Assembly: GCF_010686705.1 (NCBI RefSeq)
Contig: NZ_JAAGWY010000002.1
Location: 148,001-212,000 of the forward strand
DNA from: Leifsonia tongyongensis
GTDB taxonomy: Bacteria; Actinomycetota; Actinomycetes; Actinomycetales; Microbacteriaceae
Reading direction: 5' to 3'
DNA: 64,000 bases
Part shown: one piece after another, positions 25,826 through 50,931 of the stretch
Position numbering within the stretch: position 1 is the first letter of the stretch
Layout of the letters: each line of letters begins with the position of its first letter
Notes under the pieces: model-generated
What the model was told of the DNA's origin: nothing
Database searches by the model: none
The model's input: only the letters and a program-made list of their open reading frames with translations
Position numbers and translations under genes: made by a program

Positions 25826-26236
25826 TCAGGCGGTGGGGGCGGCTGCGGCGGGGGATCCCGAGAGGGCTTTGGCCTTGAGGGCGTCGAACTCGGGCTGGGT
25901 GATCGTGCCGGAGTCGAGAAGCGCCTTGGCCTTCGCGATGTCGTCGGCCGGCGATGACGGCGTGGCCGCGACCGAGCGGATGTACGAATTGGCGTCGGCT
26001 TGGGCGGCTTCGGCTGCTGCCCGCTGGCGTTCGGCCATCCCGCGCCCGCGCGCGATCAGGTAGACGAGTGCCGTGAGGAACGGCAGGAACACCAGGAAGA
26101 TCACCCACACCGCCTTCCACCAGCCGTTCAGCTTGTGGTCGCGGAAGAGGTCTCCGATGATCGAGAACAGGATCATCAGGTAGGCGATGAAGACGAATGT
26201 CCAGAAGAAGAACGAAACGAAGTCCCAGAAGTTCAC
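25826..26236 (-). CDS. PLDc_N/SHOCT small membrane protein
   Basis: About 136 residues. Two hydrophobic helices (FVSFFFWTFVFIAYLMILFSIIGDLF and a second with WWKAVWVIFLVFLPFLTALVYLIARG) match the phospholipase-D N-terminal-like membrane domain. A linker leads to a C-terminal SHOCT motif (DDIAKAKALLDSGTITQPEFDALKAKAL). SHOCT motifs act as oligomerisation modules. A GTG at 26236 starts the domain; AAAGG lies about ten bases upstream. The promoter is marked by palindrome A (26315-26335) and a TACATT hexamer, which links it to the stress regulon described at 45-50 kb. Confidence 0.8.
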   Translation of the reverse strand: MNFWDFVSFFFWTFVFIAYLMILFSIIGDLFRDHKLNGWWKAVWVIFLVFLPFLTALVYLIARGRGMAERQRAAAEAAQADANSYIRSVAATPSSPADDIAKAKALLDSGTITQPEFDALKAKALSGSPAAAAPTA

Positions 26237-26287: not shown

Positions 26288-26335
26288 AATGTAACGGCGT
26301 CGCGCTGGCGGGTGCATCACCCTCATCGGGTGATG
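26288..26335 (-). promoter_or_regulatory. Palindrome site A and -10 of SHOCT gene
   Basis: CATCACC-N7-GGTGATG (26315-26335), with perfect arms, is followed on the minus strand after 21 bases by -10 TACATT (26293-26288). Transcription would start near 26281 and leave a leader of about 45 bases before the GTG at 26236. The palindrome and its distance to the -10 match sites B, C and D. Within the 383-base stretch 26237-26619 the other feature is the sorting-signal remnant. Confidence 0.7.
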
Positions 26336-44414: not shown

Positions 44415-45056
44415 TCAAGCGCTCGCGGGCGTCGCGGCGCGCGCCGGGCGACTCAGAAGCGCCGCCACGAGGAAGCACGCCGCCCCGAACAGGGTTCCCG
44501 CGTTCGCCCAGAACACGCTCAGCAGGTCGCCGGTCTGCGGGATCACGTAAGCGCCGATCGCCGAGAGCCCGAACAGCACCGACCCGGTCATGTTCAGCCA
44601 GGTGCACTGCCAGGTTCGCGCCTGTGGATCCCACAGCTTGTCGCGCTCGGTCGTCGCGACCACCGCGAACGCACTCGAGACGAGAAAGCACACCGACCCG
44701 AGCACGTCGGGTCGCCAGCCGCCGTTGACCCTCGCAGCGTCGTTGATCGAGTGGAGCAGCGCATCCGTCGTGCTGATGTTGAAGAAGAGGGTCCCGACGA
44801 ACTGCACCGCCGCCGACCACCAGTCGAACGTATCCGGCCGGTTCGTTCCGCGGCGGGGCGGCCGCCGGCCGCTCAGCCCCAGCTGGATGAGCGCCGCCGC
44901 GGTGAAGAACAGCGCACCGATGAAGAACGTCAGGTTGTCGACCGTCGAGCCGACCGCCTCCGCATAGAACGGTATGGCGCCGACCATGAAGAACAGCGAG
45001 CCGATCGCGAACCCCCACGCCTCACGGCGAAGGCGAAAGGACTGGTCGGCCGCCAT
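44415..45056 (-). CDS. YrhK-like membrane protein
   Basis: 213 residues with five to six helices (GFAIGSLFFMVGAIPFYAEA, NLTFFIGALFFTAAALIQL, VLGSVCFLVSSAFAVVAT and others). The repeated GS(L/V)-x-F plus aromatic pattern resembles the YrhK domain, a membrane family of unknown function; I hold that name loosely. The start codon lies six bases after TACATT (45068-45063), and 20 bases beyond that is palindrome B, shared with the divergent aquaporin gene. That makes it a member of the proposed stress regulon. Confidence 0.72.
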   Translation of the reverse strand: MAADQSFRLRREAWGFAIGSLFFMVGAIPFYAEAVGSTVDNLTFFIGALFFTAAALIQLGLSGRRPPRRGTNRPDTFDWWSAAVQFVGTLFFNISTTDALLHSINDAARVNGGWRPDVLGSVCFLVSSAFAVVATTERDKLWDPQARTWQCTWLNMTGSVLFGLSAIGAYVIPQTGDLLSVFWANAGTLFGAACFLVAALLSRPARAATPASA

Positions 45057-45141
45057 CGGCCGAATGTAGCGCGGGTTCGCCCAGGCGACATCATCCCTTC
45101 CGGGTGATCGCCGACGCGCGCGAGAGGACTACATTGTCGCC
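45057..45141. promoter_or_regulatory. Mirror-symmetric divergent promoter with palindrome site B
   Basis: Site B, CATCATC-N7-GGTGATC (45089-45109), is flanked on each side by exactly 20 bases, then TACATT reading outward (45068-45063 minus, 45130-45135 plus), then exactly six bases to an ATG (45056 minus, 45142 plus). Both transcripts would be leaderless. The palindrome centre would lie at about -43 for each, and no good -35 hexamer is present, as in activator-dependent promoters. Confidence 0.82.
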
Positions 45142-45990
45142 ATGACCGAGGAAAACGAGCTCGAAAAACCGGGCGACGAAATCGTCTCCGACATCGTGCA
45201 CGGCCGCATCACGCACCTGCCGGTAAGTGTCGACCGCGCGATCGAAGACTTCCACGACAGCTCTCAGGAGTGGCGGAGGCTCTTCTCGGAGCTGCTCGGC
45301 ACGTTCTTCCTCGTGCTCGCCGCGGCCGGCGGCGGCATGATGGGCCAGGCCTTCCCGAACACGATCTCACGGACCGCCGCGGTCACGGCGCCGGCCCTCA
45401 CCGTCTTCGCGATCATCCTGTTCATGGGCAAGGTGTCGGGCGCACACCTCAACCCGGCGGTGAGCATCGCATTCGCACTGAGAGGCGATTTCCCGTGGGC
45501 GCGAGTACCCGGCTATATCGTCGTACAACTGGCCGGAGCATCCCTCGCCGCCTGGTTCCTCGCGGGGGTGCTTCCCGTCTCGGCGAAGTACGGCTCCAAC
45601 TACCCGGCCAGCGGTTATGCGGCCGGCATCGCTTTCGTCATGGAACTGGTGCTGACCTTCGGTCTGGTCAGCGTCATCCTCGGCACCGCATCCGGTGCGC
45701 AGAACCTGGGAGTCATCGGCGCTTTCGGTGTCGGCGCGTACATCGCGCTCGCGGGCCTGTGGGCGAGCCCCGTCTCTGGCGCATCGATGAACCCGGCCCG
45801 CACGTTCGGGCCCGACCTCGTGGCGGGCGACTTCACGTCGTACTGGGTCTACGTGGCGGGTCCGATCGCCGGCGCGATCGTCGCGGTCGGTGCGGCCTTC
45901 CTGCTGCGTGGGCGCGGTGGCGGCGCATCCGGATCGGGTGCGGCCCAGGGCGACCTCAACACGAAAGTCGCCAACCCGCGCAAGCCGTGA
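45142..45990 (+). CDS. Aquaporin/MIP family channel
   Basis: 282 residues, six helices with the two pore half-helix motifs HLNPAVS (about 106-112) and SMNPARTFGPD (about 215-225). It has long hydrophilic N- and C-terminal tails, the latter Gly/Ser-rich. It allows water, and possibly small neutral solutes, to cross the membrane; selectivity residues cannot be read with confidence. It is leaderless from the divergent site B promoter and is followed by the glutamate decarboxylase gene, which has its own site C. Confidence 0.92.
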   Translation: MTEENELEKPGDEIVSDIVHGRITHLPVSVDRAIEDFHDSSQEWRRLFSELLGTFFLVLAAAGGGMMGQAFPNTISRTAAVTAPALTVFAIILFMGKVSGAHLNPAVSIAFALRGDFPWARVPGYIVVQLAGASLAAWFLAGVLPVSAKYGSNYPASGYAAGIAFVMELVLTFGLVSVILGTASGAQNLGVIGAFGVGAYIALAGLWASPVSGASMNPARTFGPDLVAGDFTSYWVYVAGPIAGAIVAVGAAFLLRGRGGGASGSGAAQGDLNTKVANPRKP

Positions 45991-46009
45991 CCGGGCGAGA
46001 TCGGCGGGA

Positions 46010-46056
46010 CATCACCCGCATGGGATGATGCCGTGCGACGACCGAGTTCTTAGCGT
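46010..46056 (+). promoter_or_regulatory. Palindrome site C and -10 of glutamate decarboxylase gene
   Basis: CATCACC-N7-GATGATG (46010-46030), 20 bases, -10 TAGCGT (46051-46056), then six bases to the ATG at 46063. The geometry is identical to both sides of site B. No ribosome site precedes the ATG. Confidence 0.8.
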
Positions 46057-46062
46057 GGCAGC

Positions 46063-47484
46063 ATGACCGCCACCACAACCTTGAAGCACGGCGACGTGCC
46101 ACACGCTTTCACCGGCATCGGCGACCAGAACCAACTCAACCCGATATTCGCCCGTGCCGGTGAATCAACCGATTTCCCACTCAATGCCCTTCCCCCCAGC
46201 GAGTCTCTGCCGGAGACCGCGTACCAGATCGTGCACGACGAGGCCATGCTCGACGGCAACTCGCGGCTCAACCTCGCGACCTTCGTCGGCACCTGGATGG
46301 ACCCCTTCGCGAACAAGATCTACGCCGAGTCCGCAGACAAGAACATGGTCGACAAGGACGAGTACCCGCAGACCGCCGCCATCGAGACGCGCTGCTGGAA
46401 GATGATGGCCGGGCTCTGGCACGCACCCGACCCGGAGAACGCCATCGGCACGTCGACCATCGGGTCGTCCGAGGCGTGCATGCTCGCCGGCCTCGCGCTG
46501 AAACGGCGCTGGCAGCTGGCACGACGGGCCGCAGGCAAACCTGCGGACAAGCCGAACCTGATCCTGTCGAGCGCTGTCCAGGTGTGCTGGGAGAAGTTCT
46601 GCAACTACTGGGACGTCGAAGCGCGCTACGTCCCCATCTCGCTCGAACACAAGGTGCTCGACGGCCACGACCTCGAGTCGTATGTCGACGAGAACACGAT
46701 CGGCGTCGTCGCCATCATGGGCGTGACCTACACCGGCATGTACGAGCCGGTCGAGAAGATCTCGCGTGTGCTCGACAAGATCGAGGAGTCGACGGGGCTC
46801 GACATCCCCATCCACGTCGACGGCGCGTCGGGCGGCATGATCGCGCCGTTCCTGCAACCGGACCTGATCTGGGATTTCCGGCTCGAACGGGTCGCCTCCA
46901 TCAGCACGTCCGCCCACAAATACGGACTGGTGTACCCGGGTCTCGGATGGGTGATCTGGCGCACCGTCGACGACCTGCCCAGCGAGCTCGTCTTCGACGT
47001 CACCTACCTCGGCGGCCACATGCCCAGCTTCGCCCTCAACTTCTCCCGGCCGGGCGCGCAGGTGCTGCTGCAGTACTACCTGTTCCTGCGCCTCGGGTTC
47101 GACGGCTACTACCGCGTGCAGAAGGCGTCCCAGGACGTGGCCGTGTACCTCGCGAGCGAGATCGGCCGGATGCCCGCCTTCGAGCTCTGGAACGACGGCA
47201 CCGACATACCCGTTTTCGCCTGGCAGCTGGCGAAAGGTCACACGGACAAGTGGAACCTGTACCACCTCTCCGAGCGGCTGAGGCTGAAGGGCTGGCTGAT
47301 CCCCGCCTACCCGATGCCCGACGACCTGACCGACATCGTCGTGCAGCGCATCGTCGTGCGCAACGGGCTCAGCCGCAACCTCGCGGAGAGCCTCGTCGTC
47401 GACATCGCCGAGGCTGCCGCCTATCTCGATGCGCTCGATTCGCCGATGCCGACGGAAGGGCTGGTCACGTCGTTCACCCATTGA
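46063..47484 (+). CDS. gadB: Glutamate decarboxylase
   Basis: 473 residues, the standard length for bacterial GAD. The PLP Lys is in ISTSAHKYGLVYPG at about residue 285; PIHVDGASGGMIAPF carries the PLP-binding Asp. Substrate-side TSTIGSSEACMLAGLALK near 130 and the N-terminal lid region are typical. It converts glutamate to GABA and consumes a proton, so it raises cytoplasmic pH in acid stress. No glutamate/GABA antiporter gene lies next to it. It has its own leaderless promoter (site C), and the DUF2252 gene follows 63 bases later. Confidence 0.95.
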   Translation: MTATTTLKHGDVPHAFTGIGDQNQLNPIFARAGESTDFPLNALPPSESLPETAYQIVHDEAMLDGNSRLNLATFVGTWMDPFANKIYAESADKNMVDKDEYPQTAAIETRCWKMMAGLWHAPDPENAIGTSTIGSSEACMLAGLALKRRWQLARRAAGKPADKPNLILSSAVQVCWEKFCNYWDVEARYVPISLEHKVLDGHDLESYVDENTIGVVAIMGVTYTGMYEPVEKISRVLDKIEESTGLDIPIHVDGASGGMIAPFLQPDLIWDFRLERVASISTSAHKYGLVYPGLGWVIWRTVDDLPSELVFDVTYLGGHMPSFALNFSRPGAQVLLQYYLFLRLGFDGYYRVQKASQDVAVYLASEIGRMPAFELWNDGTDIPVFAWQLAKGHTDKWNLYHLSERLRLKGWLIPAYPMPDDLTDIVVQRIVVRNGLSRNLAESLVVDIAEAAAYLDALDSPMPTEGLVTSFTH

Positions 47485-48983: not shown

Positions 48984-50135
48984 TCAGGCTGCGTCGGCGG
49001 GGGCGGGCTCGCCCGACGAGGGCGGGTGCTTCTTCGCTTCGCGCCTGTCCTTGCGCTCGTGCTTGGCTTCCGCCTCCTCCGCCTTCTGCAGGTCGCGCGT
49101 CTCTGTCGTCGGGCCGAGCGCCGGGCGCCACCAGTGCGCATCCGGGTCGGAATCGACGAGGATCGTCTTGCCGAGCAGCGTGAGCGGAATGGCCAGGATC
49201 GCACCGATCGGGCCGATCACCACCGCCCAGAAGAGCACGGAGAAGAACGTGATGGTCTGGCTGAGCGAGACGGCGTGACCGACGACACGGGGCTGGATGA
49301 TCGACTGCACGACTGCGTTGATGATTCCGTACACGACGATGACGGCGATGACGGTCGGCCAGCCCCCGACGAGGAAGCCGAACACGACCGGCGGGATCAG
49401 CGCGAAGAAGTAGCCGATGTTGGGGATGAAACTGCACAGAAACGCCAGGAGGCCCCAGAGGAGCGCGGCCGGCACGCCCAGGATGTAGAGGGCGATCGAG
49501 TTCAGCGCGCCCTGTACGACACCGAGGACTGTCGTCACCACCATGTAGCGCCGCACATTCGACGCGTAGTCGGTGACCGCCGACACCAGGTTGGGATTGC
49601 GGGTGCCCAGCTGGTGCAGGATCGTATGGGCATAGGCAGCGTCGGCCGCCATCAGGATCATCATGGTCAGGATGATCACCAGAGCTCCGGTGATGCTGAC
49701 CACGCTGCCCAGAAGACCGGAGATGACGTGCCCGAGGTTGCTCGGCGTCAGTCCTTTCTCGACGGCCTGAACCTGATCGGGTCCGACACCGAGACTGGTC
49801 AGCCAGGCGCCGATACTCGCCCCGATCTGCTCGAACTGCTTCTGGTAGTTCGGCAGCATCGCGACGAACTGGGCGGTGGCCAGGATGAGCGTGTAGGTGA
49901 ACCCGGCGAGCAGGCCGAACACGACCAGGATGACGGAGCCGGTCGCGATTCCTCCCGGCACACCGCGCTTCAGCAGCCCCGTTCGCACCGGGTTCGCGCA
50001 GATCGTCAGGATGAGCGTGAGAAGGACGGGCGCGAGGATGCCCCTGATCGAGCTGATGCCGATCGCCGTCAGCGTCGCCGCGCCGAGCGCGACCAGGATG
50101 TTGGTTCCTCTGGGCAGTCCCAGACTGCTTGTCAT
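48984..50135 (-). CDS. AI-2E family transporter (TqsA/PerM-like permease)
   Basis: 383 residues with about eight helices. The family signature region PQVVGHAVSLSQTITFFSVLFWAVVIGPIGAILAIPLTLL-like C-terminal bundle is present (about 275-320). A charged Lys/Glu-rich tail (LQKAEEAEAKHERKDRREAKK) follows. Members export autoinducer-2 or act as Na+/H+ antiporters or general permeases. The ATG at 50135 is leaderless, with TAGCGT six bases upstream and palindrome D 21 bases beyond. Confidence 0.88.
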   Translation of the reverse strand: MTSSLGLPRGTNILVALGAATLTAIGISSIRGILAPVLLTLILTICANPVRTGLLKRGVPGGIATGSVILVVFGLLAGFTYTLILATAQFVAMLPNYQKQFEQIGASIGAWLTSLGVGPDQVQAVEKGLTPSNLGHVISGLLGSVVSITGALVIILTMMILMAADAAYAHTILHQLGTRNPNLVSAVTDYASNVRRYMVVTTVLGVVQGALNSIALYILGVPAALLWGLLAFLCSFIPNIGYFFALIPPVVFGFLVGGWPTVIAVIVVYGIINAVVQSIIQPRVVGHAVSLSQTITFFSVLFWAVVIGPIGAILAIPLTLLGKTILVDSDPDAHWWRPALGPTTETRDLQKAEEAEAKHERKDRREAKKHPPSSGEPAPADAA

Positions 50136-50141
50136 GGCCTC

Positions 50142-50189
50142 ACGCTAGGGATTTGCGCGGTCGGCCCACATCATCCCAACGGGGTGATG
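50142..50189 (-). promoter_or_regulatory. Palindrome site D and -10 of AI-2E gene
   Basis: Site D, CATCATC-N7-GGTGATG (50169-50189), then 21 bases, -10 TAGCGT (50147-50142 minus) and six bases to the ATG at 50135. In the other direction a TATCGT at 50212-50217 stands 22 bases away and could serve the GAP-family gene at 50266 with a leader of about 42 bases. Confidence 0.78.
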
Positions 50190-50265
50190 TGGGCGGGCGC
50201 GGGATGCGCACTATCGTTCACGAAGGGGCGCCCGCGCGCAGTCCCCGGAAAGTGGGGCGGGACCG

Positions 50266-50931
50266 ATGCTGGCGGCCGTGGGGCATGTGCTTCCCCTGGC
50301 TGTCGCTTTCGCGCTCAGTTCGATCCCGATCATGGCGACCATTCTCATCCTGCTCTCGAAGAACAGAAATCGGGCGGCGATTCCGTTCCTGATCGGCTGG
50401 ATCGTCGGCATCGCCCTCGTGCTCGTCCTGCTGATCGCCCTCGCACAGGCAGTGCCGGGCACCGTGCCGAAGACGTCGCAGGTGCTTCTCGGCTCGTTCC
50501 TCATCGTCATCGGGGTCGCGTTGATCGCGCTGTCGGTCGTCAACTGGGCGCGCGGGAGACGGAAGCAGACCGCCGGTATCCCTCGGTGGCTCCGTGCGGT
50601 GAGCTCGTTCGGCCCTTTATCGTCGTTCGGATTCGCGCTGCTGCTGAACGTGCGCCCGAAGGCGATCCTGCTGAGTGCGGCTGCCGGGCTGTCGCTCCGC
50701 GGCGACGGGCTGACGCCGGGCGAGACCGTGGGGGTGATCGTCATCTATACGCTCGTGTCCGCGTCCACGGTGGCGATCCCGATCATCGCGCGTCTCGTGG
50801 CGCCGACCCGCACGGAACTGCCCCTGGTGCACGCGCGGCGATGGCTCGAGGACAACAGTTCGGTCGTGTCGGCGCTCATCCTGGTGCTCGTGGGATTCGT
50901 CGTCATCGCCGACGGCCTCACCCGGCTCTGA
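50266..50931 (+). CDS. GAP-family (Sap) / LysE-superfamily membrane protein
   Basis: 221 residues, six helices: AVGHVLPLAVAFALSSIPIMATILILLS at the N-terminus with the proline pair, then AIPFLIGWIVGIALVLVLLIAL and a later NVRPKAILLSAAAG. This matches GAP (Sap, sulfolipid-addressing protein) proteins, which move lipids or peptidolipids across the membrane in mycobacteria. The substrate here is unknown. It is divergent from the AI-2E gene and shares palindrome D. Confidence 0.82.
   Translation: MLAAVGHVLPLAVAFALSSIPIMATILILLSKNRNRAAIPFLIGWIVGIALVLVLLIALAQAVPGTVPKTSQVLLGSFLIVIGVALIALSVVNWARGRRKQTAGIPRWLRAVSSFGPLSSFGFALLLNVRPKAILLSAAAGLSLRGDGLTPGETVGVIVIYTLVSASTVAIPIIARLVAPTRTELPLVHARRWLEDNSSVVSALILVLVGFVVIADGLTRL

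What the first reader, a model, noticed from the sequence alone, without database searches (positions are those of the whole stretch)
45057..45141. Perfectly mirror-symmetric leaderless divergent promoter
From the palindrome outward, both sides read 20 bases, TACATT, six bases, ATG. Neither side has a -35 hexamer or ribosome site. One dimer at about -43 could serve both RNA polymerases, so this 85-bp unit is a compact bidirectional activator-dependent promoter.
Basis: partly seen in the sequence, partly recalled or inferred. Interest (0 to 1): 0.75.

Follow-up and report, generated by a model that had tools for sequence, protein, structure and literature searches.

The report
Two-way promoter sharing one activator site
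A short symmetric DNA site between two oppositely pointing genes looks like the docking site of a MalT-like activator that could start transcription in both directions, and the same site with the same spacing recurs beside stress-type genes in this and other actinobacteria.

Summary
A 17-bp palindrome, TCATCC-N5-GGGTGA (45091-45107), lies exactly midway between two divergent ATGs. On each side 22 bases, TACATT and 6 bases lead to the ATG, without a -35-like hexamer or ribosome site. It is one of a family: TCAYCC-N5-GGRTGA occurs 11 times in this genome (reversed control 1) and 80 times in 40 genomes, own included (control 6). In 73 of those 80 sites TANNNT starts 22-23 bases beyond the palindrome in 31 of 146 arms, 0.5 expected. 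Motif and -35 overlap match the published MalT site of Actinoplanes SE50/110 (PMC7567727): 34.4 +/- 1.0 bases to mapped starts there, 34 to the ATGs here. A MalT-like LuxR gene with the same palindrome upstream lies 2.4 kb outside the window; such genes track the sites in 150 family genomes. The 'perfect' symmetry follows from a symmetric operator with fixed spacing; leaderlessness varies. Apparently new: the mirrored divergent use and the targets (glutamate decarboxylase, aquaporin, AI-2E transporters). Transcript starts, binding and signal are untested; 43 of 73 sites lack such a -10.

The parts
45091..45107 (.). MalT-box-like palindrome TCATCC-CTTCC-GGGTGA, shared operator, centre 45099 (-43 from both ATGs)
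45130..45135 (+). -10 hexamer TACATT for the aquaporin gene, 22 bases from palindrome
45063..45068 (-). -10 hexamer TACATT for the YrhK gene, 22 bases from palindrome
45142..45990 (+). aquaporin-type MIP channel, ATG 6 bases after the -10
44415..45056 (-). YrhK-family membrane protein, ATG 6 bases after the -10
46012..46028 (.). second palindrome TCACCC-GCATG-GGATGA; -10 TAGCGT at 46051-46056 (+), 22 bases away
46063..47484 (+). glutamate decarboxylase (TIGR01788, 610.8 bits, cut-off 380.4), ATG 6 bases after the -10
50171..50187 (.). third palindrome TCATCC-CAACG-GGGTGA, divergent: -10 TAGCGT at 50142-50147 (-), 23 bases; TATCGT at 50212-50217 (+), 24 bases
48984..50135 (-). AI-2E family transporter, ATG 6 bases after the -10
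50266..50931 (+). SfLAP family membrane protein
26317..26333 (.). fourth palindrome TCACCC-TCATC-GGGTGA; -10 TACATT at 26288-26293 (-), 23 bases
25826..26236 (-). PLDc_N/SHOCT small membrane protein, with a leader

Best explanation
The 85-bp intergenic unit is a bidirectional, activator-dependent promoter of a MalT-like LAL (large ATP-binding LuxR) regulon. The palindrome is two inverted MalT-type half-sites (GGRTGA). An activated MalT-like protein, most likely the LAL encoded at G000:C2:142997-145570 just outside the window, binds there; in each direction the proximal half-site covers -40 to -35 and stands in for the missing -35 element, so that sigma/RNA polymerase is recruited to the TANNNT -10 22-23 bases further on. 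Because site and spacing are symmetric, either strand can be read: YrhK one way, aquaporin the other, both from an A that is also the A of ATG. Shown here: anatomy, spacing rule, recurrence, association with the LAL. Taken from published work in Actinoplanes: activation by MalT through the same motif. Inferred: that this LAL is the binder, that both directions fire, that polymerases alternate rather than bind together, and that the signal is a stress cue.
For: Palindrome enriched: 11 vs control 1 in this genome, 80 vs 6 in 40 genomes including own, 157 vs 27 in 150 family genomes (summed). Fixed -10 spacing: 31 of 146 arms at 22-23, P about 5e-44 by a binomial that ignores relatedness. Palindrome plus 22 bases plus TANNNT: 35 matches in 20 of 396 phylum genomes, 3 for the reversed control. 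Published MalT motif TCATCC-5nt-GGATGA over -35, 34.4 +/- 1.0 bases from 17 mapped TSSs, activation shown by malT deletion and overexpression (PMC7567727). LAL gene P0001: MalT is its best NCBIfam and PDB match (8bob, 1.1e-36); palindrome upstream of 7 of 28 LAL-like loci examined. Genomes with a LAL match average 3.4 sites against 0.6 without; at least 4 sites in 9 of 23 vs 2 of 127. The same-genus orthologous locus keeps palindrome and 22/22 spacing.
Against: No transcript ends, binding data or mutants for this organism. 43 of 73 sites have no TANNNT at 21-25 on either side, including the own-genome site upstream of the LAL gene and one at C2:522073. P0001 scores 290 bits, below the curated MalT cut-off of 537. 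5 of 23 family genomes with a LAL match have no site, and 2 of the 11 genomes with at least 4 sites (G015, G136) have no LAL match at 1e-20; one search scored only 6 candidates per genome. The genome has 25 LuxR-type HTH matches, including a second P0001 relative without the palindrome (L100). Of 16 family genomes with a YrhK homologue only 4 have the palindrome within 160 bases upstream, and in one of these (G104) the YrhK arm has no TANNNT at 21-25.
Confidence: 0.82

Rival explanations
1. Same kind of operator and geometry, but the binder is another LuxR-type regulator of this genome (another LAL or a response regulator), not the LAL at C2:143 kb.
For: 25 GerE/LuxR HTH matches in the genome. 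In G004 a second LuxR-type gene (L105) also has the palindrome just upstream. Two family genomes with at least 4 sites have no close LAL match.
Against: The LAL carries the palindrome in own genome and sister species at the same distance; LAL presence tracks site number over 150 genomes; GGATGA is the MalT half-site (PMC7567727 discussion).
Confidence: 0.2
2. The palindrome is a repressor operator: the protein blocks both divergent promoters, which otherwise work from the -10 alone, as many actinobacterial promoters lack a -35 motif.
For: No conserved -35 motif was found in M. tuberculosis, where TANNNT dominates (PMC3898074 passages), so missing -35 boxes alone do not prove activation.
Against: The -10 spacing is fixed within 1-2 bases over many genes and genera, which a blocking site would not need; the same motif at the same position activates in Actinoplanes.
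Confidence: 0.07
3. Only one direction is activated from the palindrome in practice; the other TACATT is weak or used by a different promoter.
For: Most sites are one-sided: 7 of 73 have a -10 on both sides and 23 on one. In G104 the YrhK arm lacks TANNNT at 21-25. In E. coli, strong activation in one direction of a bidirectional promoter can repress the other (abstract of PMC12825309); those promoters are of another design.
Against: Both arms here have the same TACATT at the same spacing; the 22/22 pair is kept in the sister species; exact 22/22 pairs recur in 9 actinobacterial loci of 25 found in a genome-collection scan.
Confidence: 0.2
4. Chance arrangement without function.
For: A single symmetric 85-bp unit read by eye could be picked out after the fact.
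Against: Counts against controls and the spacing peak; same-genus conservation.
Confidence: 0.01

Closest known systems
MalT regulon of Actinoplanes sp. SE50/110 (MRLGR; PMC7567727)
   Same: Palindrome TCATCC-5nt-GGATGA overlapping -35; 34.4 +/- 1.0 bases to TSS against 34 here; LAL/MalT-like regulator in the region; genes unrelated to maltose uptake.
   Different: Targets there are mostly amino-acid related or unknown; here glutamate decarboxylase, aquaporin, YrhK, AI-2E and SfLAP membrane proteins. The text I read does not discuss divergent use of one site or leaderless starts. Here most sites have C/G at the fourth base of one or both half-sites (TCAYCC/GGRTGA).
Enterobacterial MalT boxes (E. 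coli, Klebsiella mal promoters; as described in PMC7567727)
   Same: Half-site core GGA(T/G)GA next to the -35 region; STAND/LAL activator.
   Different: There described as repeats of the core hexanucleotide at maltose genes (same source); here one inverted pair with 5-base spacing that can face either way.
Pseudo-symmetric bidirectional promoters of E. coli (Warman et al., PMC12825309, abstract and outline only)
   Same: One short DNA unit drives divergent transcription; possible competition between polymerases.
   Different: The abstract describes one pseudo-symmetrical sequence that engages polymerase in two exclusive orientations; here the two -10 elements are 61 bases apart and the shared part is an activator site.
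Leaderless TANNNT promoters of actinobacteria (M. tuberculosis, PMC3898074, passages)
   Same: TANNNT -10 shortly before the start codon, no conserved -35.
   Different: Those are defined by mapped 5' ends; here leaderlessness is predicted and the activator palindrome is added.

Membership tests
Actinoplanes-type MalT-dependent promoter | Inverted repeat TCATCC-5nt-GGATGA (allowing TCAYCC/GGRTGA) | tested here: met
   TCATCC-CTTCC-GGGTGA: one base off the strict motif, exact to the relaxed one; 1 of 11 own-genome sites (C1:40284) is strict
Actinoplanes-type MalT-dependent promoter | 3' end of motif 34.4 +/- 1.0 bases from TSS, overlapping -35 | tested here: inconclusive
   34 bases lie between motif and ATG on both sides and the -10 spacing is fixed, but the TSS is assumed, not mapped
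Actinoplanes-type MalT-dependent promoter | MalT-like LAL regulator in the same genome and linked to sites | tested here: met
   LAL at C2:142997-145570 with palindrome upstream; 8 of 11 sites lie within C2:81928-198187 around it
Actinoplanes-type MalT-dependent promoter | Expression falls without, and rises with excess of, the regulator | not testable with these tools
   needs mutants; shown only in Actinoplanes
MalT protein (NCBIfam NF003420 equivalog) | Score above curated cut-off 537 bits | tested here: not met
   P0001 scores 290.1 bits; called MalT-like LAL, not MalT
LAL (large ATP-binding LuxR) regulators | N-terminal AAA/NTPase, TPR region, C-terminal GerE HTH | tested here: met
   AAA_22 35.2 bits (cut-off 27), GerE 43.3 (23.5), TPR_12 33.7 (30.1); TPR_MalT 41.7 is below its cut-off of 45
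Leaderless promoter | TANNNT about 6-7 bases before the start codon and no ribosome site | tested here: met
   6 bases on both sides; sequence criterion only
Leaderless promoter | 5' end of mRNA at the start codon | not testable with these tools
   no transcript data for this organism
E. coli pseudo-symmetric bidirectional promoter | One pseudo-symmetrical core sequence in which one polymerase binding event prevents the other (as in the abstract) | tested here: not met
   two separate -10 hexamers 61 bases apart, each with its own spacing to the palindrome; exclusive binding itself was not tested

The most novel reading that the evidence does not exclude
A MalT-like regulator family found in several actinobacterial orders uses one direction-neutral operator: a dyad that replaces the -35 element on both strands, so that any gene placed on either side at the right distance joins the regulon. 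Divergent partners have been swapped across genera while palindrome and -10 spacing stay (YrhK/aquaporin, YrhK/glutamate decarboxylase, AI-2E/SfLAP, AI-2E/BrkB, AI-2E/phospholipase D-like, SHOCT/sulfate permease-like), giving a maltose-unrelated stress regulon with strictly coupled two-way output.
Probability: 0.45. Interest if true: 0.55.

Novelty: new variant of a known kind. Interest (0 to 1): 0.42.

Why it matters
If true, it gives an exactly symmetric natural test of how one activator dimer can drive two polymerases in opposite directions: the two sides have the same -10 hexamer and the same distances, so any bias in output must come from the palindrome halves or the flanks. It also extends a published but little-followed MalT motif from Micromonosporaceae to Microbacteriaceae and, by pattern matches, to Actinomycetospora, Arthrobacter, Cryobacterium and Solirubrobacterales genomes, and offers a regulator and a target list for poorly understood membrane proteins.

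Tried and rejected
Treating the unit as a one-off was rejected when 11 genome sites appeared. A sigma-70 promoter with a poor -35 was rejected for lack of any -35 match above 3 of 6 and because the spacing is tied to the palindrome. A repressor operator was judged unlikely (see rivals). Leaderlessness as the cause of the symmetry was rejected because the sister species keeps the spacing but not the short leader on one side. Search for prior mention of TCACCC/GGGTGA with LuxR, actinobacteria and palindromic gave 180 papers with at least 3 of 5 terms, 12 listed, none recognisably about this motif from the listing. Searches gave background only. No structure prediction or fold search was run. The conserved bases's table for the palindrome are partly circular, because sites were picked by that pattern; the -10 and the following TG (T 0.74, G 0.71 of 31) were not part of the site pattern, but the arms in that table were chosen for having TANNNT. 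The binomial P value and the co-occurrence tests are not corrected for relatedness; G000 and G001 are one genus and share orthologous sites. The 73 sites are 73 of the 80 counted: not fetched were 4 of 5 in G007, 1 of 2 in G030, 1 of 2 in G035 and the single G029 site. Of the 25 stretches, 9 are high-GC actinobacterial; the other 16 come from other phyla and many may be chance matches in AT-rich DNA.

Full report
Observation. One search shows the unit as described. The palindrome TCATCC-CTTCC-GGGTGA (45091-45107) is centred on 45099, which is also the exact midpoint between the two ATGs (45054-45056 on the minus strand, 45142-45144 on the plus strand). On both sides the order is 22 bases, TACATT, 6 bases, ATG. 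Both ORFs are listed from the first possible start codon after a stop. The left gene is a YrhK-family protein (PF14145, 34.6 bits, cut-off 26.1), the right one a MIP/aquaporin-type channel (PF00230, 158.6 bits). No -35-like hexamer is present: at most 3 of 6 matches to TTGACA at 15-20 base spacing.

It is one of a family. The relaxed motif TCAYCC-N5-GGRTGA occurs 4 times in the window, all exact, and 11 times in the genome against 1 for the reversed pattern. Eight of the 11 lie in C2:81928-198187. In 40 genomes (own included) there are 80 sites in 19 genomes against 6 control matches; in 150 family genomes 157 against 27 (summed).

Fixed geometry. I could read both flanks of 73 of the 80 sites. 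TANNNT begins 22 or 23 bases after the palindrome in 31 of 146 arms, against 0.53 expected from the density elsewhere in the same arms, and in none at any offset from 0 to 20. At 21-25 bases it is 37 hexamers in 146 arms, on 30 of 73 sites; 7 sites have it on both sides (3 own, their 3 same-genus orthologues, 1 in G007); 43 sites have none. In the own genome 12 of 22 arms on 9 of 11 sites have it. Across the phylum, palindrome + 22 bases + TANNNT matches 35 times in 20 of 396 genomes, against 3 for the reversed control. A blocking site would not need such constancy; a protein that touches polymerase at the -35 position would.

Own-genome targets with such a -10 include the aquaporin, YrhK, glutamate decarboxylase (TIGR01788, 610.8 bits, cut-off 380.4), AI-2E transporter, SfLAP, two PLDc_N/SHOCT proteins, two DUF7144 proteins, a DUF998 protein and two MFS transporters. 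This looks like a stress or envelope regulon rather than sugar use; that is inference. Five of the 12 own-genome arms have their gene's ATG six bases after the -10 (both sides of the focal site, glutamate decarboxylase, AI-2E, one MFS); the others have leaders.

Regulator. The own-genome site at C2:145652 lies 81 bases upstream of an 858-residue LAL protein (P0001; AAA, TPR and GerE domains). Its best NCBIfam match is MalT (290.1 bits, below the cut-off of 537) and its best PDB match is E. coli MalT 8bob (E 1.1e-36; organism recalled, the call names only MalT). Of 28 loci with LAL-like matches in the relatives, 7 have the palindrome upstream (L080, L081, L082, L083, L088, L101, L105; 78-588 bases from the match or ORF start; in L101 it falls inside the longest possible ORF) and 21 have none within the 1.5-kb flank held. 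In some searches, G067 and G156 show the same (131 and 187 bases). Leifsonia poae L112 has a 50% identical LAL start with a palindrome at 792 just upstream. Over 150 family genomes, those with a LAL match (E up to 1e-20) average 3.4 sites, those without 0.6; at least 4 sites in 9 of 23 against 2 of 127. Exceptions: five LAL genomes without a site (G054, G056, G098, G112, G127) and two site-rich genomes without a match (G015, G136). These tests ignore relatedness, and one search scored only 6 candidates per genome.

Known counterpart. In Actinoplanes sp. SE50/110, MEME on mapped TSSs found TCATCC-5nt-GGATGA in 17 promoters, 34.4 +/- 1.0 bases from the TSS and over the -35 region; deleting malT lowered 42 of 51 genes of the region and overexpression raised 39 (PMC7567727: abstract, sections 12, 13 and 15, and part 1 of 2 of section 14 read). 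The same paper recalls the E. coli MalT core GGA(T/G)GA. Here 34 bases separate palindrome and ATG, and one half-site differs from the strict motif by one base. I therefore place the unit as a MalT-type promoter. The mirrored two-way use and leaderless starts are not discussed in the sections I read; I did not see the figures.

Divergent use elsewhere. A scan of about 85,000 genomes for palindrome with TANNNT exactly 22 bases away on both sides gave 25 stretches, 9 of them high-GC actinobacterial: Leifsonia poae, four Actinomycetospora, Arthrobacter sp. GMC3, Cryobacterium sp. BB307, a Solirubrobacterales MAG (two units) and an Actinomycetota MAG. In three Actinomycetospora loci (L114, L124, L131) both ATGs lie 7-9 bases after the -10. 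Partner pairs tested by Pfam: AI-2E/SfLAP (L112), sulfate permease/SHOCT (L113), AI-2E/BrkB (L114), AI-2E/phospholipase D-like (L115). LAL-like sequence is near in L110, L112, L114, L118 and L131. For YrhK, 16 of 150 family genomes have a homologue; 14 of these 16 loci also hold a glutamate decarboxylase match within the fetched 3.6 kb. Four of 16 have the palindrome upstream of YrhK: own genome and G001 facing the aquaporin, G104 and G136 facing glutamate decarboxylase. In G136 both arms fit (23 and 22 bases, ATG 6 and 7 bases after the -10); in G104 only the decarboxylase arm does. In G001 both arms keep 22 bases, the aquaporin ATG stays 6 bases after its -10, but YrhK starts 55 bases after its -10 behind GGGGAG. 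So the spacing is conserved more than leaderlessness.

Why the symmetry is 'perfect'. Given an inverted-repeat site and a spacing limited mostly to 22 or 23 (17 and 14 of the 146 arms), equal spacing on both sides is expected in about half of all two-sided cases; and a start codon at the TSS fixes the 6-7 bases after the -10. The symmetry is thus a by-product, not an extra signal.

Mechanism. Most likely an activated MalT-like multimer binds the dyad; the proximal half-site in each direction covers -40 to -35 and takes the place of the -35 box. The two half-sites are only 11 bases apart centre to centre, so two polymerases back to back would crowd each other; alternation is my guess. Confidence 0.82 for the MalT-type activator promoter, lower for the exact regulator and for simultaneous use.

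Verdict. A well-spotted, real promoter unit of a known regulatory kind in a new arrangement and with new targets. Interest 0.42.

Noticed in passing
L120:3815, L132:6182 and 6424, L134:5065, L123:2610 and 6296 (Tenacibaculum, Pedobacter): The same palindrome in Bacteroidota with TAnnnT 22 bases away, on both sides in most and often reading TAnnTTTG (resembles the Bacteroidetes -7 element, recalled); LuxR-type HTH matches lie in L120 and L123. Could be a parallel regulon or chance in AT-rich DNA.
   Followed up: no
L052:6595 and 6633 (G003 C6:114594 and 114632): Two palindromes 21 bases apart, each with a TANNNT 22 bases outward: a doubled divergent unit.
   Followed up: no
G004 C2:761629, locus L105: A second LuxR-type gene in G004 has the palindrome 78 bases (site start) upstream of its longest ORF, besides the LAL at C1:494654.
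   Followed up: partly
window 44415-47484 and loci L135-L150: YrhK homologues sit near a glutamate decarboxylase match in 14 of 16 family loci, suggesting a role of YrhK in glutamate-dependent acid resistance.
   Followed up: partly
L009:6652 (G000 C2:145652): The palindrome upstream of the LAL gene itself has no TANNNT at 21-25 on either side; a second, imperfect TCACCC-N6-GGGTGT lies between it and the gene. Its role in autoregulation is unclear.
   Followed up: no
L139, L141, L142, L144 (G117, G143, G078, G070): YrhK matches listed with one stop codon inside the matched stretch; may be match overrun or broken genes.
   Followed up: no
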